A stretch of DNA of 23,351 bases, from the IMG/VR virus record IMGVR_UViG_3300002514_000114, positions 1-23,351 of that record. The stretch is one strand, 5' to 3'. A program made the position numbers and the translations under genes. Source of the stretch: a virus. The notes beneath the pieces were generated by a model. That model was not told the DNA's origin. It saw only the letters and a program-made list of their open reading frames with translations, and made no database searches. Positions 1 to 18,904 of this stretch are shown piece after piece; position 1 is the first letter of the stretch; each line of letters begins with the position of its first letter.

Positions 1-12
1 AATGTCTTTCAT
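1..12 (-). CDS. Start of a gene truncated by the window edge
   Basis: Only the first four codons (ATG AAA GAC ATT, product MKDI) are inside the window. The ATG overlaps the TGA stop of the preceding gene as ATGA, the junction type used by most genes here. A purine-rich Shine-Dalgarno (GGGGAAG) ends five bases before the ATG. Function cannot be assessed. Confidence 0.55.
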
Positions 13-239
13 GTTTGCTTCCCCTTCTCTTCAGAATCGCTTAATACCTCTAGATAGGTTGCACCCATCGGAAGTATTGTTTTCTCGTTGTCTCCATTAA
101 ATATCACAGCGCACAGTCCGTGCCTCTCGTCAATTTCCACAACAATCCCGCACTTATCCATCTTATCTCCAAAATTGATAAGGCGCTGGCGCTCTTCGTC
201 GCAGGCGAACTGGCGGCGGACTAAGTCACCGACATTCAT
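9..239 (-). CDS. Small VGDLV-family protein (predicted beta-barrel)
   Basis: Protein of 76 residues starting MNVGDLVRR. It has the pattern shared by several proteins in this window: an N-terminal VGDLVR strand, a central CGIVVEID strand, and a hydrophobic AVIFNG strand followed by a short loop. The pattern suggests a small SH3/KOW-like barrel, which is inferred from the pattern alone; no function is known. I chose the ATG at 239 over an in-frame GTG at 254 because GAGAG lies about ten bases upstream and VGDLV then sits at the extreme N-terminus as in its relatives. It overlaps the end of the preceding gene by 14 bases, so the two are probably translationally coupled. Confidence 0.8.
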   Translation of the reverse strand: MNVGDLVRRQFACDEERQRLINFGDKMDKCGIVVEIDERHGLCAVIFNGDNEKTILPMGATYLEVLSDSEEKGKQT

Positions 240-489
240 AATCGAATCTCTCACACCAGAAGCTGTGAACTCTCGTTTGGGAGCCCTTTGTAGCTACATC
301 ATAAAATATGCCGGCCGGCGTCTCTGTGACACCAATAACCAACGCCACATCGCCGAACTCAAGGATGCCGTCTGACCCATCGAACTTGGCGCCGAAAGTG
401 TTGGCAGCGAGATCATAGCGTGGATCAATGATCTTAACAAGCGAGCCGACGCTCAAAATGGGTGGGGAGGTGGTTGTTAAATCTCCCAT
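226..489 (-). CDS. Small VGSLV-family protein (predicted beta-barrel)
   Basis: Protein of 87 residues. After a 13-residue polar leader it carries LSVGSLVKI, the same opening as its neighbours, then an insertion rich in Gly and Asp, a strand VALVIGV and a C-terminal FYDVATKG strand-turn. It is a diverged member of the VGDLV family seen along this end of the window. No catalytic or metal-binding motif is visible. It starts inside the end of the preceding gene (13-base overlap). Function unknown. Confidence 0.75.
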   Translation of the reverse strand: MGDLTTTSPPILSVGSLVKIIDPRYDLAANTFGAKFDGSDGILEFGDVALVIGVTETPAGIFYDVATKGSQTRVHSFWCERFDYECR

Positions 490-689
490 TCCACTATCCT
501 TCCAATGTTGTGAACAGTCCCATCGTCGCGAACGTCAACCCATTCTTCTATGGAGTCCTCCCAAAGAATCTTCATTCTCTCCTTCGGAACAAGCTCCACA
601 ACGATTCCATCGAGCTTTTTATCCCTGCTATACACACGGCTACCGATGAAGAAGTGAAGAAGGTAATTAACGTTTCGAGCGATGGTCAC
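477..689 (-). CDS. Small basic/acidic protein of the VGDLV-like set, GTG start
   Basis: I place the start at the GTG at 689, giving 70 residues. This GTG overlaps the TGA stop of the upstream gene as GTGA, matching the junction style of the region. The longer open frame to 782 would overlap the upstream gene by 97 bases and adds an Arg/Ser/Cys-rich stretch typical of out-of-frame translation. The protein contains FIGSRVYSRD, then DGIVVELVP, MKILWED and a short C-terminal IGRIVEWEI, similar in layout to the small-barrel family though weaker. Function unknown. Confidence 0.65.
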   Translation of the reverse strand: MTIARNVNYLLHFFIGSRVYSRDKKLDGIVVELVPKERMKILWEDSIEEWVDVRDDGTVHNIGRIVEWEI

Positions 690-871
690 TTTTCTGATGT
701 CTCGTTGTAGACTGGGTGATCTCCGCGAACAATAGCGAGAAGTTCGTAGCCATCTCGAACATGCTTTCGGATCTCTCTCCACGCTTCCTTGTTATCGTGT
801 GGAGCATTCATTCGCAGCGGGGCAACCTGTCCATCTTCACTGTTGATTGTGATGGCTGTATAAAACATCAT
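686..871 (-). CDS. Hypothetical protein, 61 residues
   Basis: Short protein starting MMFYTAITI. It alternates a beta-like N-terminus with a helix (KEAWREIRKHV) and a second strand (YELLAIVRGD), suggesting a small alpha/beta fold. The ATG overlaps the upstream stop as ATGA and the downstream GTG overlaps its own stop as GTGA, which supports it as a real gene. I do not recognise the family. Confidence 0.7.
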   Translation of the reverse strand: MMFYTAITINSEDGQVAPLRMNAPHDNKEAWREIRKHVRDGYELLAIVRGDHPVYNETSEK

Positions 872-1095
872 TCATTTTCCTCTTTTGTTGCTTTTTCTAT
901 CCACATTTCGTGAAAATAAAGTTCGGTTCCATTCAAAAAACGAATATTCCAAACATCATCATTGTATTTTTTGTCGGTTAAGCGCTCTAAGATGATTCCC
1001 ATTCTAATCTCTGGCATGCTGGTGTCGTGGATACCGGCTTTGATACGTACAAGATCGCCAACTTTAAGCGGAGGTGGTGCGGACTTCTTAGTCAC
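868..1095 (-). CDS. Small VGDLV-family protein (predicted beta-barrel)
   Basis: Protein of 75 residues with a clear family signature: LKVGDLVRIKAG, then MGIILERL, WNIRFLNGTEL and a C-terminal MWIEKA. The order (opening strand, spacer, GI-[IV]-LE strand, [VI]xFxNG strand, terminal strand) matches the other members and is what a KOW/SH3-like barrel would give. The start is GTG, with GGCGAG a few bases upstream; it follows the upstream gene by eight bases. Its stop overlaps the next ATG as ATGA. Function unknown; the barrel fold is inference. Confidence 0.8.
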   Translation of the reverse strand: MTKKSAPPPLKVGDLVRIKAGIHDTSMPEIRMGIILERLTDKKYNDDVWNIRFLNGTELYFHEMWIEKATKEENE

Positions 1096-1103
1096 TTTCT
1101 CGC

Positions 1104-1322
1104 CTATAACACGAGATGTCTGACTTGAACAGGATGCAAGATCGCAGAGTCAACAAACCAACCTGTCACAACGCCGTGTGGGCGCGCCCTGCCACGGGAG
1201 AAAAATATTAGATACTCCGTGAATAGGCAAACACTTTCAGAACCAGCAGCGCGCCTGTCAAGCACCACCCCGAGGGGTCCAGAACTACCGAAGCGAGCCA
1301 AGTCACCGATCTCAAATTTCAT
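1104..1322 (-). CDS. Small IGDLA-family protein (predicted beta-barrel)
   Basis: Protein of 72 residues from the ATG at 1322: MKFEIGDLARFGS, then PLGVVLDRR, CLFTEYLIFF and a Gly/Arg-rich loop before WFVDSAILH. A longer in-frame ATG exists at 1340, but GGAGAA lies about nine bases before 1322 and that ATG overlaps the upstream stop as ATGA, so 1322 is preferred. It belongs with the VGDLV proteins by its opening and its G-V-V-L-D strand. No enzyme motif seen. Confidence 0.75.
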   Translation of the reverse strand: MKFEIGDLARFGSSGPLGVVLDRRAAGSESVCLFTEYLIFFSRGRARPHGVVTGWFVDSAILHPVQVRHLVL

Positions 1323-1531
1323 GATGGGGGTTCTCCACATCTAAGTACAGCACTGTCATCGGAATATTCGATGTAAAACATATCACCCTCAACAATATAG
1401 CAGGGGAACGTAGTTAGTGGTACGATTCTATCGGTAACGCGATACTCTACATCGATCAACTCAACTCTTACGCTGTCGTTGTCGATACTATCGACCGTTC
1501 CCATCAAAAATACTCCGATTAGCGTCTTCAT
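1319..1531 (-). CDS. Hypothetical beta-rich protein, 70 residues
   Basis: The start is placed at the ATG at 1531 (MKTLIGVFLMGTV), which forms an ATGA overlap with the upstream stop; an ATG three codons earlier is possible. The sequence is beta-rich: GVFLMGTVDSI, SVRVELIDVEYRV, FYIEYSDDSAVLRC. It lacks the exact VGDLV opening but has a similar size and strand pattern to its neighbours and may be a far relative. Function unknown. Confidence 0.65.
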   Translation of the reverse strand: MKTLIGVFLMGTVDSIDNDSVRVELIDVEYRVTDRIVPLTTFPCYIVEGDMFYIEYSDDSAVLRCGEPPS

Positions 1532-1719
1532 TCTGTGCAATCCCTGTTTACAACGGTGATGGTGATTCTGCTATTGTTCTTGATAAAAATGATTTTTAGA
1601 TTCTTCAGCATATACGTCATCTTCCATAGGTCGCATTTCTTCCTAAAATGAGGAAGTGCTTCTAATAAAGTTCCATCAAAGAACGTTGTACAAGAGGAGT
1701 GGTCAGTTAGAAGAAGCAT
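1528..1719 (-). CDS. Hypothetical protein, 63 residues, first gene of a sigma70-driven unit
   Basis: Short protein starting MLLLTDHSSC and ending with a basic, beta-like stretch (LKNLKIIFIKNN, RITITVVN). It is the first gene after a perfect TTGACA-17-TATAAT promoter. GGAAG lies seven bases before the ATG. The distance from -10 to ATG is so short that the transcript leader should be only about eight bases. The gene is coupled to the next by ATGA. No family recognised. Confidence 0.6.
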   Translation of the reverse strand: MLLLTDHSSCTTFFDGTLLEALPHFRKKCDLWKMTYMLKNLKIIFIKNNSRITITVVNRDCTE

Positions 1720-1733
1720 TTTTATCTTCCATT

Positions 1734-1762
1734 ATTATACAATCTTTTATTTAATTTGTCAA
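1734..1762 (-). promoter_or_regulatory. Perfect-consensus sigma70 promoter
   Basis: On the minus strand TTGACA (1757-1762) and TATAAT (1734-1739) are separated by exactly 17 bases, all twelve hexamer positions matching consensus. It sits between the tRNA gene and the first gene of the small-protein cluster and should transcribe towards position 1. A start about seven bases past the -10 leaves a leader of roughly eight bases before the ATG at 1719. Confidence 0.85.
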
Positions 1763-1778
1763 AGGTTTTTTAAAAAAA

Positions 1779-1853
1779 TGGTGGGCAGAGTCAGGATTGA
1801 ACTGACGACTTTCGCTGAGTCAAAGCGACACTCTCCCACTGAGTTATCCGCCC
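1779..1853 (-). tRNA. tRNA-Val (anticodon GAC), CCA encoded
   Basis: The 75-base minus-strand sequence folds as a full cloverleaf. The acceptor stem is GGGCGGA/TCTGCCC with one G-T pair, the D stem ACTC/GAGT, the anticodon stem TCGCT/AGCGA with loop TTGACTC, the variable loop AAGTC, and the T stem GTCAG/CTGAC with loop TTCAATC. Discriminator A73 and an encoded CCA follow. U33-GAC gives valine (codons GUC/GUU); A35, C36 and A73 agree with known valyl-tRNA identity elements. From memory it resembles plastid/cyanobacterial trnV-GAC. Position 37 is a pyrimidine, where a purine is normal. A run of seven T follows the CCA. It probably shares the transcript of the two small genes upstream. Confidence 0.92.
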
Positions 1854-1863
1854 ATAAGTTGCT

Positions 1864-2166
1864 TTAGCCCTCTTCTGATAGAGGCTGCGTGCGAGATTCT
1901 TGGAGAGACTTTTGCAACTCTGCATCCTCCCTGGCTTCTTTCATAAAGATCATAATCTCCTGTAAAAATACATTGAGTTCACGAGTCTCTGTTAGGAGGC
2001 TGTGGTCCAGATGCCTGTCGGGTTCATATAGACGCCCATCGATTTGGCGCTCTGTTTCATAGTCCATAAACGACTCCATCACATAGAGAGCGCCACCAGC
2101 GAAGCCTGCGCCAAGTGTAGCCAACCATCCAGCCGTCATTGCAATTGCATATAAAGAATTATTCAT
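1864..2166 (-). CDS. Small membrane-anchored protein
   Basis: Protein of 100 residues with one hydrophobic, Gly/Ala-rich segment at about residues 7-30 (AMTAGWLATLGAGFAGGALY) followed by a charged, helical cytoplasmic or periplasmic tail (ETRELNVFLQEIMIF, EAREDAELQKSL). This is a single-pass layout. It overlaps the preceding coiled-coil gene by eight bases and lies just before the tRNA gene. Together with that neighbour it could form a two-protein membrane device, for example a lysis accessory or superinfection-exclusion factor, but nothing specific identifies either. Confidence 0.7.
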   Translation of the reverse strand: MNNSLYAIAMTAGWLATLGAGFAGGALYVMESFMDYETERQIDGRLYEPDRHLDHSLLTETRELNVFLQEIMIFMKEAREDAELQKSLQESRTQPLSEEG

Positions 2167-2464
2167 TTTCTTCCTCTTTTTCTTTGTTTTTCGCTTTTAC
2201 TTTATCGTAAAAAAGAATGTTCTCTTCGATTTGTCTCAAAACACTGAGATTGTTGTTGACTCTCCAGACGCCTTCGGCGATCTCAAGAATCTGGTCGTTA
2301 CAACTATAATTCGCCTCCAGCGCCTGAAGGTTGATTTTATCTTGGAGTTCTTTTACCAGGGTAGACATACGATTGAGTTTTACTTTGAGCTTCTTGATTT
2401 CTGCAATCTTGGACTCAAAGATGAAAGTCTCAATCTTTTCCAATGGTGTTTTGTCGTCTGGCAT
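2159..2464 (-). CDS. Coiled-coil protein, 101 residues
   Basis: Almost entirely helical, with heptad-like Leu/Ile/Val spacing from about residue 8 to 60 (KIETFIFESKIAEIKKLKVK, LVKELQDKINLQALE) and a very charged Lys/Glu tail (KAKNKEKEEENE). No signal peptide or membrane segment. It is the first gene after the TTGACA promoter at 2491-2519 and is translationally coupled to the membrane protein downstream. Function unknown. Confidence 0.72.
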   Translation of the reverse strand: MPDDKTPLEKIETFIFESKIAEIKKLKVKLNRMSTLVKELQDKINLQALEANYSCNDQILEIAEGVWRVNNNLSVLRQIEENILFYDKVKAKNKEKEEENE

Positions 2465-2490
2465 GTTTTACCCGTTCGAAGATTTAATAT

Positions 2491-2519
2491 AGTGTATCAT
2501 TGTTCCCCAGAGATGTCAA
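2491..2519 (-). promoter_or_regulatory. Sigma70-type promoter (TTGACA-17-TACACT)
   Basis: Minus strand TTGACA at 2514-2519 and TACACT at 2491-2496 are spaced by 17 bases. The -35 is perfect and the -10 matches at four of six positions. It lies in a 68-base gap and the expected start is about 20 bases before the ATG at 2464. It should drive the coiled-coil gene, the membrane protein gene and the tRNA-Val gene. Confidence 0.7.
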
Positions 2520-2532
2520 GGGATATTTTAAA

Positions 2533-2808
2533 TTATTGTGCATCTTTGGCGTGCCTCTCATGAATTTCGTGCATAAGAAAGTAACGCTCCTTGCCATCAG
2601 TACAAATAACTCGGTAGTATAAAGCTTTTGGCCAAGGAAATGAATATGTGTGAACGTGTGTTATGACACCGTAGTAGTATGTTCTTTCATCATCTGGAAA
2701 GAGGTAGTAGTCGGACATATCATAATAGCACTTTACGAAATCCCCGACAGAATAGGGACTTCTAGCTATTAGCTCCTTTATTACCTCTTCTTCGTCGTAG
2801 AACTCCAT
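2533..2808 (-). CDS. Small VGDFV-family protein (predicted beta-barrel)
   Basis: Protein of 91 residues with a charged helical leader (residues 1-17, MEFYDEEEVIKELIARSPY) followed by SVGDFVKCYYD, a Tyr/Asp-rich spacer, YYYGVITHVH and LYYRVICTDGKERYF, ending HEIHERHAKDAQ. The order of strands matches the VGDLV proteins nearer the window start, with a longer N-terminal helix. Starts three bases after the upstream gene with only a weak ribosome binding site. Function unknown. Confidence 0.75.
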   Translation of the reverse strand: MEFYDEEEVIKELIARSPYSVGDFVKCYYDMSDYYLFPDDERTYYYGVITHVHTYSFPWPKALYYRVICTDGKERYFLMHEIHERHAKDAQ

Positions 2809-2811
2809 GTA

Positions 2812-3114
2812 CTATATATCATCGTGGCGTTCTCTTAGTATCACTGCCCCAATATAATCTTTGGGGCACAGAATGAATACACAGCGCCACCCCATCCACT
2901 TAGGGATGTAGTCATAGATGGGGAAATCGGGTAACTGTTCTTCGATAAGAATAGAAGTGTCCTCCACCTCCAAGTATACATCCATAGTCGAGCCTCCACT
3001 GTCGGATGCGAACATTACGTGCATTCTTCCATCAAAGTGCTCAATAACCGATTCGCGAATTGCTCGGTCGGCCTCCTTCTTCGACGCCTTTTCCCCTGAA
3101 CCAAACTTAGCCAT
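2812..3114 (-). CDS. Hypothetical protein, 100 residues
   Basis: Starts MAKFGSGEKASKKEADRA, with a basic helix of about 25 residues, then alternating strands (MHVMFASDSGG, TMDVYLEVEDTSILIEE) and a C-terminal aromatic section (MGWRCVFILCPKDYIGAV). Probably a small alpha/beta protein. A good Shine-Dalgarno (GGAGG) lies eight bases before the ATG inside the preceding gene, with which it overlaps by eight bases. No family recognised. Confidence 0.72.
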   Translation of the reverse strand: MAKFGSGEKASKKEADRAIRESVIEHFDGRMHVMFASDSGGSTMDVYLEVEDTSILIEEQLPDFPIYDYIPKWMGWRCVFILCPKDYIGAVILRERHDDI

Positions 3115-3361
3115 CTGCTCTACCTCCCATGGTATTATTTAAAATCTCAGCCCGATCGTCATAAAGATGAACAAAATGCCAAACATATTCACTCTTTGAG
3201 TAGCAATGAACCAGCGCCATGCAAGAATCACGCTCAGAAATCTCCAGCACTATTCCGTAATTATACTCTGGATCCAGTCCTCGTTCAACCCCAGTTGGTG
3301 AAGCCTCGTAAATAGCGTATGCTATTGGCCACCTTATGAGTTGTCCGATCTCGTATTCCAC
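3107..3361 (-). CDS. Small IGQLI-family protein (predicted beta-barrel), GTG start
   Basis: The open frame extends to 3472, but that part overlaps the glutaredoxin gene and is Arg/Cys/Ser-rich, so I place the start at the GTG at 3361, giving 84 residues opening VEYEIGQLIRW. This aligns with MKFEIGDLARF and other members of the family. Later it has YNYGIVLEIS, MALVHCYSKSEYVWHFVHLY and DDRAEIL, again the family order of strands. No clear Shine-Dalgarno precedes this GTG, so the exact start is uncertain. Function unknown. Confidence 0.68.
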   Translation of the reverse strand: MEYEIGQLIRWPIAYAIYEASPTGVERGLDPEYNYGIVLEISERDSCMALVHCYSKSEYVWHFVHLYDDRAEILNNTMGGRADG

Positions 3362-10647: not shown

Positions 10648-11001
10648 TCACTTCCAAAATAGTTGTATCGCCATAATGACGAAAGATAAAAAGACGCAAG
10701 TCATTGTCTTCGCTGTAAACATACTCTCGTTCAAAAAGTACCAAGTCAATATCGGAAAGGTCAGATATGACAGCGAGAACATCAAGAAGCGGGGTCCCCA
10801 CACAACACCCAATTCTTCATAAGCGAGCTTGATACCCAGCCAGAAGCACAATCCTGCTGGGATCGAAAAGAGGACCACAGCGACAAACGGCTTATCCCTC
10901 CACCATTCCCACACAAGCTGAGCGTTTAAATGCAGGAAACCGAAGGTCTGTCCAACTGTAAACAGTAAGCAGACATACATCATATTTTTAGACATAATCA
11001 T
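10648..11001 (-). CDS. Four-helix inner-membrane protein, SMR-like size
   Basis: Protein of 117 residues with four predicted transmembrane segments at about 6-24, 38-60, 71-90 and 97-115. The third and fourth (SLSYLTFPILTWYFL, TMTCVFLSFVIMAIQLFW) resemble the last helices of small multidrug resistance or EamA-type half transporters, and ESMF between them fits the same layout. The conserved membrane Glu of EmrE in helix 1 is missing, so drug/proton exchange is unlikely to be shown. Similar proteins, from memory, are frequent in marine phages. Weak ribosome binding site; two more in-frame Met codons follow within seven residues. Confidence 0.78.
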   Translation of the reverse strand: MIMSKNMMYVCLLFTVGQTFGFLHLNAQLVWEWWRDKPFVAVVLFSIPAGLCFWLGIKLAYEELGVVWGPRFLMFSLSYLTFPILTWYFLNESMFTAKTMTCVFLSFVIMAIQLFWK

Positions 11002-11032
11002 ATTTTTCTACATTGCCACAGCGATTAATATA

Positions 11033-11791
11033 TTAGTAGTTGGCAACGATCATCTCCCTTTGCGCGTCCTTGTTGAGTGTCTTCTGTCCATACTTGTCAA
11101 GGTAAGTTATGTTAAAATCTTTATACATCTGCTCGGCTTTCTTGTGTGGCTCGTACATCACAATCCACTTTTTATTAATACTTTTTAGTGTCTCGCAAAC
11201 ATCTGAATGGTTCAGTATGGTGCTCTCATGTCCACGGCTCTTACCGTCATCAAAAAAGTTATAACTGAATTTGCCCATGGGCAGCAATAGATAATCCCCT
11301 TGTGCGGATTCGATCGACTTTATCAGCCCTCTGTTGCTCTCCAAAGAAATATGCATATTGTCGATCTTAAAATTCTTCAAATATGATGGGACGAGGGGGG
11401 TGAATTTGCTCTCATCTAATTTTCCAGACGAAACAAGTCCGCCGTCAGAACAGCGGTTTAGAATAAAGAACAAAGCAGATCTTACATATGGGTCTCTGTA
11501 TTGTGACCAAGTCTCCTGTAGGACATTGAATAGCTGCTCGCTCCCAATGGGCATCAGCTTGCTTACTATCGCGGCGATGCGCTTTGGGTTGGACATCAGG
11601 CACTCCCAGAATTCGTGGATGACATACCTCTCGGTATGTGCGACAACAAAGCGTCCCGATTCCGCAAGAGAGATCTCCAAGTCTCCCGCGTAAAGATTGA
11701 ATATGTCGACAACAGAGCCGGGCGGTATCATCTCCTTTACAAACGGTGTCGCCTTAGTTGCCAAACGATAGTCTTTGACTGGGCTCTTCAA
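11033..11791 (-). CDS. D12-class adenine-methylase-like protein, catalytic motifs lost
   Basis: Protein of 252 residues that follows Dam/D12 order without its key residues. VVDIFNLYAGDLEISLAESG (28-46) takes the place of EPFxGGGxxxxxL, AHTERYVIHEF (51-61) that of the AnDxNxxLI helix, SALFFILNRCSDGG (105-118) that of the helix with conserved Asn, and GDYLLLPMG (165-173) that of the DPPY strand. The ending REMIVANY resembles the usual xEVLIxNY. No DPPY is present, so methyl transfer is improbable; it may be a DNA-binding or partner subunit. The start is TTG overlapping the upstream stop as TTGA. Assignment is by pattern. Confidence 0.6.
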   Translation of the reverse strand: MKSPVKDYRLATKATPFVKEMIPPGSVVDIFNLYAGDLEISLAESGRFVVAHTERYVIHEFWECLMSNPKRIAAIVSKLMPIGSEQLFNVLQETWSQYRDPYVRSALFFILNRCSDGGLVSSGKLDESKFTPLVPSYLKNFKIDNMHISLESNRGLIKSIESAQGDYLLLPMGKFSYNFFDDGKSRGHESTILNHSDVCETLKSINKKWIVMYEPHKKAEQMYKDFNITYLDKYGQKTLNKDAQREMIVANY

Positions 11792-12413: not shown

Positions 12414-12707
12414 CTATCCCTTCAGCAACTGCTTGCTGTTTCTGTTTAGTGCGCTTTCAACCACATCTGGGGAGCCGACGACAACTATTTCGGTGCCACC
12501 TGAGCCCCTATTAATAAGCAGCTTTGAGAACCTCTCATTATCGCTGACCGACTCAGACAAAATAGAGCCAGCTCTCTCCATATAAACACGAGGCTGTTCT
12601 CGAATCATAACTACGTGCTCGGGGTTAACAAACACCTCTTTGAGCAGCCACTTGTGCGTGTTCGTGACGGGACCAGAGATGGCGATTTCCGTAAGTTTTA
12701 CTAACAT
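12414..12707 (-). CDS. Hypothetical protein, 97 residues (weak FlbD-like opening)
   Basis: Begins MLVKLTE and continues LLKEVFVNPEHVVMIRE, which resembles FlbD-type small proteins (MIxLTxLxG followed by xINPxxIxxIE). Past residue 45 the similarity stops; a polar stretch and a strand TEIVVVGSPDVVESAL follow. Likely a small beta-rich protein. Overlaps the preceding gene by seven bases with AAGGA upstream. Function unknown. Confidence 0.72.
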   Translation of the reverse strand: MLVKLTEIAISGPVTNTHKWLLKEVFVNPEHVVMIREQPRVYMERAGSILSESVSDNERFSKLLINRGSGGTEIVVVGSPDVVESALNRNSKQLLKG

Positions 12708-12910
12708 TTATTTTCCTTTTCCACGGGATATACGTGGTCCTTTTTAACTAAAACATTTCGCCCATTAATGAAAACTTCATATAGGCTTCCCTGCTCTTTA
12801 ACCAAAAGAGCGATCGATGGCTTTTTGGTTCGACTGATGTGAGAACCAGCGCCGTTATTTACGTGCAGATCGACAGCTTGCGGTATGTATACTAAATCTC
12901 CTTGTTGCAT
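12701..12910 (-). CDS. Small GDLV-family protein next to groEL
   Basis: The frame opens further upstream inside groEL, but the ATG at 12910 forms TAATG with the GroEL stop and has AGGAG nine bases before it. The product is 69 residues: MQQGDLVYIPQ, then a Gly/Asn loop, PSIALLVKEQ, YEVFINGRNVLVKKD and VYPVE. The strand order is that of the VGDLV family at the other end of the window. It occupies the position where groES often lies, but it lacks the GroES mobile-loop sequence and is too short. Function unknown. Confidence 0.78.
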   Translation of the reverse strand: MQQGDLVYIPQAVDLHVNNGAGSHISRTKKPSIALLVKEQGSLYEVFINGRNVLVKKDHVYPVEKENKC

Positions 12911-16639: not shown

Positions 16640-17278
16640 TTAAAAGATAACGTCAGCAATTCCTAATCTAACTGCTTCCTCTGCATCTAAATAGATGTTT
16701 ACCTTTCTTTCTAGCATTTTACGGACCTGAGATTCTGTCATTTTTGTATTTTCAACCAGAACTCTCGTGTAATCTTGCTGTAGGGTCTCGATGGCTTCCA
16801 TCTCGTTGAGGAGATTGTGAAGTGGTCCATGAGAACCGGCGATAACTGAGTGTATCATAACGCGGCAGTTCGCTCCGATGAATCTTCGACCCTTCGTACC
16901 ACCTGCGAGAAGCAAGACGCCTGCGGACATGACCTTGCCGACACCGATGGTGTGGATCTCCGAGGAGTGCTGGACAACGCGCATAATATCGTAAAGTGCG
17001 AACATGTCGTCGGCGGATCCGCCGTATGTGGACAAATAGAACTTAATGGGCTTGATCGCCTTGGGGTCTTTTGCCATCTTGTTAAGTTCGTTGAGATAGA
17101 TCATAGCCTGCACGATTTCGGCGACCTTCTCTTCACGCACATCTGAAAATAGTCCAACATTTCTCAGATCGGGTTCTGCCAGCATCGCTCTAAGCATCGA
17201 TTGATCGACCGAGACGGGTCCAGCCTCTGTATCACCAAGAACTCTCTTTACTACCTTGTCAGTTAAACTTTTGATCAT
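16640..17278 (-). CDS. ClpP-like serine protease
   Basis: Protein of 212 residues, close to the usual ClpP length. The catalytic triad is in place: Ser118 in GKVMSAGVLLLAGGTKGRRF, His143 in RVMIHSVIAG and Asp198 in NIYLDAEEAVRLGIADVIF. Residues 78-90 (IKFYLSTYGGSADD) form the substrate-binding strand of the family. It should form rings that degrade peptides, either with a host Clp ATPase or alone; in some phages a ClpP-type enzyme acts as prohead protease. The N-terminal 45 residues differ from host ClpP. GGAGG precedes the ATG, and it sits between a membrane protein gene and a nuclease gene. Confidence 0.93.
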   Translation of the reverse strand: MIKSLTDKVVKRVLGDTEAGPVSVDQSMLRAMLAEPDLRNVGLFSDVREEKVAEIVQAMIYLNELNKMAKDPKAIKPIKFYLSTYGGSADDMFALYDIMRVVQHSSEIHTIGVGKVMSAGVLLLAGGTKGRRFIGANCRVMIHSVIAGSHGPLHNLLNEMEAIETLQQDYTRVLVENTKMTESQVRKMLERKVNIYLDAEEAVRLGIADVIF

Positions 17279-18577: not shown

Positions 18578-18904
18578 CTATTCGTTCAGCAGGGTACGGG
18601 TTTTAAGACGTGCAAGTGCCTTTTTCTCTATTTGTTTCACTCTCGCAAATGAAATCCCTAAGCGTGCGGCAACCTCTCTCAAGGTCATCGCCCCGTTCTC
18701 GTAAACGGATATCAGCGTGCAGTTTTTGTCTTCTTTAAAATCTATCCATTTCCTGCAAGTGACCTGTTTACAGAGAGTGCCATTCTGTTTACAAGATCTT
18801 GCACAGGCTAACAGCCCATCTGACTTGGGCAGAGCTGAGCGGGTTCTTAATTCGGTATCCCCTTCTTCTGCGAGGAGGGCGAACCAATCCGTTGATTTAC
18901 TCAT
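18578..18904 (-). CDS. Sigma70 region-4-like DNA-binding protein with Cys cluster
   Basis: Protein of 108 residues. Residues about 62-102 (TLREVAARLGISFARVKQIE, then KKALARLK) match the sigma region 4 helix-turn-helix that reads -35 elements and touches the beta flap. Before it is a set of cysteines, C34, C38, C45, C50 and C62, which could bind zinc or a cluster; regions 2 and 3 of sigma are absent. It may redirect host RNA polymerase or act as an anti-sigma-like competitor. It is coupled by ATGA to the ribbon-helix-helix-like gene, at the end of a sigma70-driven unit and just before a CTATTTA gap. Confidence 0.85.
   Translation of the reverse strand: MSKSTDWFALLAEEGDTELRTRSALPKSDGLLACARSCKQNGTLCKQVTCRKWIDFKEDKNCTLISVYENGAMTLREVAARLGISFARVKQIEKKALARLKTRTLLNE

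What the first reader, a model, noticed from the sequence alone, without database searches (positions are those of the whole stretch)
9..3361. A clustered, diverged family of small 'VGDLV...GIVLE' proteins
At least six short genes (9-239, 226-489, 868-1095, 1104-1322, 2533-2808, 3107-3361), two weaker ones (477-689, 1319-1531) and an outlier beside groEL (12701-12910) share one layout: an opening [VI]G[DSQ][LF][VIA][RK], a spacer of variable length, a G-[IV]-[VI]-[LVT]-E-like strand, and a strand ending near an NG or DG turn. Nine related small genes in 23 kb suggest repeated duplication with fast divergence, as in anti-defence or host-takeover arrays. The small SH3/KOW-like barrel fold is inferred. 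I know similar proteins in marine phages, all without function.
Basis: partly seen in the sequence, partly recalled or inferred. Interest (0 to 1): 0.68.

Follow-up and report, generated by a model that had tools for sequence, protein, structure and literature searches.

The report
Shuffled gene-cassette array in marine phages
The small 'VGDLV' genes in this marine virus fragment mark the edge of a large, fast-changing tandem array found in its relatives, where one short DNA sequence both ends one gene and starts the next, so that whole genes come and go precisely at that sequence.

Summary
Of the nine genes, four are clear members of one family (9-239, 868-1095, 2533-2808, 3107-3361), two are probable (226-489, 1104-1322), one is undecided (477-689) and one is not a member (1319-1531, DUF3006-like). 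The groEL neighbour (12701-12910) is a separate single-copy gene with the same predicted SH3-like fold. In large relatives (159-293 kb contigs) the family usually has about 10-33 members in tandem runs. The unexpected part is the junction. In contigs chosen only by groEL, 20 of 33 adjacent family pairs overlap by exactly 14 nt (control 5 of 197). One ~33-bp sequence, (C)TGGAGGTAATCARTGAAAGTCGGTGATTTGGT, encodes the upstream protein's LEVI(N/S)ESR-stop and, in another frame, the downstream SD, start and MKVGDLV. In six comparisons between relatives 85-100% identical, whole cassettes are present or absent with both ends at this junction, one between contigs otherwise 99.8-99.98% identical over 73 kb. 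Unrelated genes (DUF2061, GIY-YIG) also carry it. I read it as a cassette array that gains and loses genes by recombination at a dual-coding junction. Protein function (host takeover or anti-defence) is inference. The window itself holds one diverged junction, at the contig end.

The parts
9..239 (-). P0001, clear family member (MNVGDLVRR...GIVVEI...); its start lies in the 14-nt overlap with P0002
   Evidence: HMM without window rows E 5e-6; hhalign 97.6%
226..239 (-). The one 14-nt dual-coding junction in the window: ATGAATGTCGGTGA = end of P0002 (..YECR-stop) and start of P0001 (MNVGD). Diverged from the canonical ATGAAAGTCGGTGA
   Evidence: sequence; same geometry as the junctions in relatives
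226..489 (-). P0002, probable family member
   Evidence: hhalign 52% over full length, controls at most 0.9% (reversed at most 7.6%); HMM E 0.52
477..689 (-). P0003, undecided: only the middle segment (GIVVELVPKERMKILWED) resembles the family
   Evidence: HMM E 4.1, hhalign 8.4%
868..1095 (-). P0004, clear family member with similar genes in L022, L113, L117, L125 and G002; predicted five-stranded SH3-like barrel
   Evidence: HMM E 2e-11; AlphaFold pLDDT 84; relatives
1104..1322 (-). P0005, probable family member (N-terminal half)
   Evidence: hhalign 55% over 25 residues; HMM E 2.3
1319..1531 (-). P0006, not a member; resembles DUF3006 weakly; orthologues in L067, L073, L076
   Evidence: hhalign 0.2%; Pfam E 0.012, orthologues 0.0007-0.03
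2533..2808 (-). P0007, clear family member, similar gene in the same place in G001, G002, L113, L116, L117
   Evidence: HMM E 5e-7; hhalign 93.6%
3107..3361 (-). P0008, family member with orthologues in the same place in L009, L023, L024, L053, G001, G002
   Evidence: HMM E 8e-5; orthologues E 1e-8 to 1e-10 against phmmer query
12701..12910 (-). P0009, separate single-copy gene directly after groEL; predicted SH3-like barrel; not part of the array

Best explanation
These genes are the groEL-proximal edge of a tandem gene-cassette array typical of a group of large uncultured, apparently marine phages. Each cassette (median 175 bp start to start) usually encodes one small protein of about 50-75 residues with an SH3/KOW-like barrel. 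A shared sequence of about 33 bp joins neighbours and is coding in two frames: it gives the last residues LEVI(N/S)ESR and the stop of one gene, and at the same time the Shine-Dalgarno, start codon and MKVGDLV of the next. Because a cassette begins and ends within this sequence, recombination between any two junctions removes or adds a whole number of cassettes and leaves all remaining genes intact and translationally coupled. SHOWN: the family, the 14-nt overlap, the shared DNA, clean cassette presence/absence at junctions, and unrelated genes carrying the junction. INFERRED: that recombination between junctions (a RecA gene is present in all large contigs tested) made these changes; that the window's own phage continues into such an array beyond the contig end; and that the diverse products are host-takeover or anti-defence proteins that bind different partners through one scaffold (my probability for that role about 0.45).
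For: Family HMM and counts in relatives. In groEL-selected contigs 20 of 33 adjacent family pairs overlap by exactly 14 nt, against 5 of 197 control gene pairs, Fisher p 7e-16. Junction information content 46 bits in overlapping members against 24 bits in the others; an SD-like core lies upstream in 352 of 549 overlapping against 134 of 506 other members. Contigs G008 (L133) and G021 (L135) align over 60.2 kb at 99.83% and 13.3 kb at 99.98%, with one large indel, a single 176-bp cassette between two copies of ATGAAAGTCGGTGATTTGGT. Five further comparisons at 85-96% identity (L165/G002, L200/L172, L200/L210, L227/L193, L262/L151) show whole cassettes present or absent at junctions. A DUF2061 gene in L167 has junctions at both ends, and GIY-YIG genes in L188 and L179 end at junctions. 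RecA in 8 of 8 large contigs. The window shows the same geometry at 226-239 and similar genes in the same order as in G001, G002, G014, G016. Both models are SH3-like barrels.
Against: The window itself has one diverged junction; the array in this phage is not seen because the contig ends. Many family members (e.g. most of G004) lack the junction. No experiment shows recombination, coupling or function. One indel of similar size (L196/L239) is not at a junction. Most family members outside the groEL-selected set were retrieved with the junction pattern, which biases their proportions; two of the six comparisons share L200.
Confidence: 0.75

Rival explanations
1. Plain tandem duplication plus translational coupling: the overlap is kept because it supplies a strong Shine-Dalgarno and a coupled start, and cassettes come and go by ordinary unequal recombination between similar neighbours. 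The junction has no role in capturing foreign genes.
For: GGAGGT sits just upstream of the start in the junction. The upstream C-terminal Arg is kept in 333 of 347 cases and codons that would change it (GTT, GTG) are avoided, which suggests selection on the protein tail as well. Short shared ends are where recombination between diverged paralogues would fall anyway.
Against: Unrelated genes (DUF2061, GIY-YIG, helical proteins) carry the junction at one or both ends, and neighbours are too diverged (783 clusters at 60% identity) to look like recent duplicates of one another.
Confidence: 0.3
2. The products are not effectors but nucleic-acid-binding KOW/Tudor-like proteins that tune phage transcription or translation, with copy number setting dosage.
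For: The family profile weakly matches NusG/Spt5 KOW and ribosomal proteins; Foldseek neighbours include eS4, NusG, Tudor and Mfd domains.
Against: All matches are weak and say fold, not function. High diversity and turnover suit varied partners better than one dosage-dependent task (inference).
Confidence: 0.25
3. No common descent: [VI]GD at the first strand is a generic feature of SH3/KOW barrels, and the genes are unrelated small barrels that look alike.
For: For P0009, P0003 and P0006 there is no significant sequence similarity beyond a short stretch.
Against: HMM built without the window finds four of the genes at 1e-4 to 1e-11, full-length alignments, and shared junction DNA in relatives.
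Confidence: 0.07
4. The cassette presence/absence cases are assembly artefacts caused by short repeats.
For: All contigs come from metagenomes, and junctions are repeats of about 20 bp.
Against: In L133/L135 the shared repeat is 20 bp, shorter than the k-mers assemblers usually use (general knowledge). The other five comparisons are between contigs that also differ in the flanks (85-96% identity), so they are different phages.
Confidence: 0.05

Closest known systems
PeSL 'mobile regulatory cassettes' of T4-like phages (Arbiol 2010, Comeau 2014; not held here, known through PMC4503421)
   Same: Short repeated sequences at gene borders that mediate shuffling of small phage genes.
   Different: PeSLs are promoter plus stem-loop motifs (as described in PMC4503421; that they lie between genes is from memory). 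Here the repeat is inside the coding sequence of both neighbours and carries stop, ribosome-binding site and start.
Start-associated sequences (SAS/ESAS) of Cluster K mycobacteriophages (PMC3203893)
   Same: Conserved short sequence repeated before the start codons of many small non-structural genes, in one orientation.
   Different: SAS is 13 bp, 3-7 bp upstream of the start, and genes behind it are of different families; no 14-nt dual-coding overlap and no paralogue array described in the passages read.
Integron gene cassettes (from memory)
   Same: Single-gene units with a shared boundary sequence, gained and lost as whole units.
   Different: Integrons use attC sites and an IntI recombinase; no such recombinase was looked for or seen, and the boundary here is coding.
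S-PM2 cyanophage 'ORFanage' (PMC4503421)
   Same: Variable block of small unknown genes in a large marine phage that can be lost.
   Different: Lost in one large deletion; no shared junction reported.
Bacillus phage G zinc-ribbon expansion, ~35 copies (PMC7824862)
   Same: One small domain expanded to dozens of copies in a very large phage.
   Different: Different fold; no shared coding junction reported in the passage read.
YorP of SPbeta (PDB 2heq), DUF4314-type and other phage SH3-like proteins
   Same: Small phage proteins with the same predicted fold.
   Different: Weak Foldseek E-values, about 20% identity; no sequence-level family match.

Membership tests
Small SH3/KOW-like barrel (fold class) | Five to six short strands with a long loop after the first strand and a short 3-10 helix before the last | tested here: met
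   AlphaFold of P0009 (pLDDT 90) and P0004 (pLDDT 84); Foldseek neighbours SH3, Tudor, KOW, none below E 0.001 in PDB
Array family (VGDLV cassettes) | Full-length profile similarity for the nine window genes | tested here: inconclusive
   Met for P0001, P0004, P0007, P0008; probable for P0002, P0005; undecided P0003; not met for P0006 and P0009
Array family (VGDLV cassettes) | 14-nt dual-coding junction with the neighbour | tested here: inconclusive
   In the window only P0002/P0001 (226-239); frequent in relatives (20 of 33 adjacent pairs in groEL-selected contigs)
DUF3006 (for P0006) | Score above Pfam's curated cut-off | tested here: not met
   16.2 bits against 32.3; best orthologue 20.2 bits
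PeSL-type shuffling | Early promoter with stem-loop between genes | not tested
   Promoters and stem-loops were not scanned; junctions lie inside overlapping genes, so there is no space between the genes
Integron cassettes | attC site and integron integrase | not tested
   No search was made; RecA is present in 8 of 8 large contigs
Anti-defence or host-takeover proteins | Demonstrated effect on a host target or defence system | not testable with these tools
   Needs experiments; no Pfam or PHROGs function is attached to the members
GroES-like co-chaperonin (for P0009) | Cpn10 profile match | tested here: not met
   No Pfam match for P0009; the phage has another, weakly Cpn10-like protein at L002:7859-8140 (E 0.011, below cut-off)

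The most novel reading that the evidence does not exclude
A gene-capture system without a dedicated recombinase: a dual-coding junction that is stop, ribosome-binding site and start at once lets large marine phages insert, delete and exchange small genes, including unrelated ones, by short-homology recombination while keeping every neighbour in frame and translationally coupled, giving each phage a variable repertoire of small effector barrels.
Probability: 0.42. Interest if true: 0.87.

Novelty: new variant of a known kind. Interest (0 to 1): 0.74.

Why it matters
It offers a concrete DNA-level mechanism for how phages keep and reshuffle dozens of small unknown genes, a long-standing question about phage 'dark matter'. 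It predicts where insertions occur, gives a search pattern, and warns that the conserved ends of these proteins partly reflect the junction rather than protein function. If the products are counter-defence proteins, the arrays are a large unexplored pool of them.

Tried and rejected
Looking for the window's phage among cultured phages: no DNA match to a 7.7-kb stretch and no tblastn match to P0009 or its homologue; P0001, P0004 and a canonical array member gave only chance-level matches, as did the junction DNA. Single-sequence scans of IMG/VR with P0004, P0008 and P0001 found nothing, probably because the family diverges too fast for that tool; groEL was the useful anchor. I tested P0009 as a member of the array and rejected it. 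I considered that the array is host DNA: the six genome matches are all from metagenome bins; the one I examined (L248) joins bacterial and phage-like genes across a run of N, so I treat it as mis-binning or misassembly. L196/L239 differ by 215 bp that is not at a junction. Literature searches found no description of this junction or array, but the library lacks most subscription papers and preprints. Two reports on PeSLs were not held.
Full report
WHERE IT IS. The window is bases 1-23351 of a 34,560-base IMG/VR virus fragment. It encodes groEL, clpP, IMPDH and two DNA adenine methylases; beyond the window lie a second clpP, a DnaE-type polymerase, a B12-type ribonucleotide reductase and a weakly GroES-like protein. 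No DNA relative of a 7.7-kb stretch was found among 50,697 cultured-phage records. GroEL retrieved 80 related viral contigs at 61-70% identity, some from records of 145-203 kb.

THE NINE GENES. All nine ORFs are present as described. I built an HMM from two large relatives and iterated it with every window sequence excluded. It detects P0004 (2e-11), P0007 (5e-7), P0001 (5e-6) and P0008 (8e-5); P0002, P0005 and P0003 are at 0.5, 2.3 and 4.1. Profile comparison raises P0002 and P0005 to 52% and 55%, while 21 other window genes stay at or below 0.9% and reversed sequences at or below 7.6%. P0006 is excluded (0.2%); it and its orthologues lean to DUF3006 below the curated cut-off. P0009 is different in kind: it follows groEL in nearly all retrieved loci, has one strong match in each of 20 records, and resembles the family only over its first 7-10 residues.

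FOLD. AlphaFold on 59 homologues gives P0009 as a six-stranded SH3-like barrel (pLDDT 90). On 104 family members it gives P0004 as a five-stranded barrel with the same order and the same short helix before the last strand (pLDDT 84). Foldseek neighbours in the PDB are SH3, Tudor, KOW, PetP, nitrile hydratase SH3 and the SPbeta protein YorP, all at weak E-values; among viral models, many unannotated phage proteins. The family profile touches NusG/Spt5 KOW, MIB1 and PsaE sequences weakly.

THE ARRAY IN RELATIVES. The window cluster is the near edge of something larger. In G001 (203 kb), G002 (187 kb), G014 and G016, genes similar to P0008 and P0007 lie in the same order downstream of groEL, followed by tandem runs of family genes. 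Whole-record counts are 14-33 in most of the large records (159-293 kb), 10 in G032 and 5 in the divergent G004 by this profile. Over 208 loci there are 1059 family ORFs in 783 clusters at 60% identity.

THE JUNCTION. Consecutive family genes overlap by exactly 14 nt far more often than expected: 20 of 33 adjacent pairs in contigs chosen only by groEL, against 5 of 197 control gene pairs. The consensus (C)TGGAGGTAATCARTGAAAGTCGGTGATTTGGT reads LEVI(N/S)ESR-stop in one frame, and carries the Shine-Dalgarno and the start of MKVGDLV in another. Of 347 upstream proteins that overlap this way, 333 end in Arg. GTC encodes the Val in 22 of 23 unbiased cases, against 17% genome-wide use. In the window, ATGAATGTCGGTGA at 226-239 has the same geometry between P0002 and P0001, and the contig ends right after P0001.

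GAIN AND LOSS AT THE JUNCTION. L133 and L135 come from contigs of two IMG/VR datasets (G008 and G021). These contigs align over 60.2 kb at 99.83% and 13.3 kb at 99.98%, with one large indel: a 176-bp cassette between two copies of ATGAAAGTCGGTGATTTGGT. Smaller differences are spread over the contig, and 38 of 103 of them form three patches inside the array region. Five more comparisons at 85-96% show one cassette, or two neighbouring genes, present or absent with both ends at junctions; two of these involve L200. One other indel of this size, L196/L239, is not at a junction.

UNRELATED GENES CARRY IT. A DUF2061 membrane protein gene in L167 begins VKVGDTLKK and ends EDESR, with junctions on both sides between family genes. 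GIY-YIG nuclease genes in L188 and L179 end in INESR and YESR at junctions. This is hard to explain by duplication of one family alone and argues for a DNA-level element.

MECHANISM. The best reading is an array whose shared junction lets recombination add or remove whole cassettes without breaking neighbours. A RecA gene is present in all eight large contigs tested, but its use here is inferred. Whether the junction is selected for exchange or for translational coupling is open; both fit. The role of the products as takeover or anti-defence proteins is inferred from number, diversity and turnover only.

KNOWN OR NEW. The literature library describes related ideas: PeSLs in T4-like phages (cited in PMC4503421) and start-associated sequences in mycobacteriophages (PMC3203893). 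I found no account of a dual-coding junction or of this array; absence from this library is not proof of novelty. I file it as a new variant of a known kind (modular shuffling at short shared sequences).

LIMITS. Gene calls are mechanical. Most family members beyond the groEL-selected set were retrieved by the junction pattern, so proportions from them are biased. Everything rests on metagenome assemblies.

Noticed in passing
12701-12910 (-) and orthologues, e.g. L036:11579-11782: A single-copy SH3-like gene (GDL(V/C)xIPQ...KP...VYPME) directly follows groEL in nearly all related phages; its constant place suggests a link to the chaperonin, not tested.
   Followed up: partly
L002:7859-8140 (-), genome 30858-31139: A weakly Cpn10-like protein (GroES-like) encoded far from groEL; the phage may carry its own chaperonin pair.
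   Followed up: partly
16640-17278 (-) and L002:516-1121 (-): Two different ClpP-type protease genes in one phage.
   Followed up: partly
L002:10340-10792 and 10786-11559 (-): An ORF ending like an intein (FFLENGVYTHN-S) followed by helicase-like sequence, next to a DUF559/MTES-type nuclease; possibly an intein with its endonuclease. By eye only for the intein.
   Followed up: no
18578-18904 (-): Small protein with sigma-70 region 4 (Pfam E 6e-10), a possible phage transcription factor.
   Followed up: no
1779-1853 (-): tRNA-Val (GAC anticodon) inside the small-gene cluster; GTC is the codon favoured at the junction Val, perhaps a coincidence.
   Followed up: no
L196 against L239: A 215-bp presence/absence difference in a near-identical pair, with breakpoints at TTTACAT and not at a cassette junction; the inserted end looks like a tRNA 3' end, by eye.
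   Followed up: partly
L248 (CP070664.1): A record titled as a WOR-3 bacterial chromosome joins bacterial genes to phage-like array genes across a run of N; probably a misjoined or mis-binned record.
   Followed up: partly
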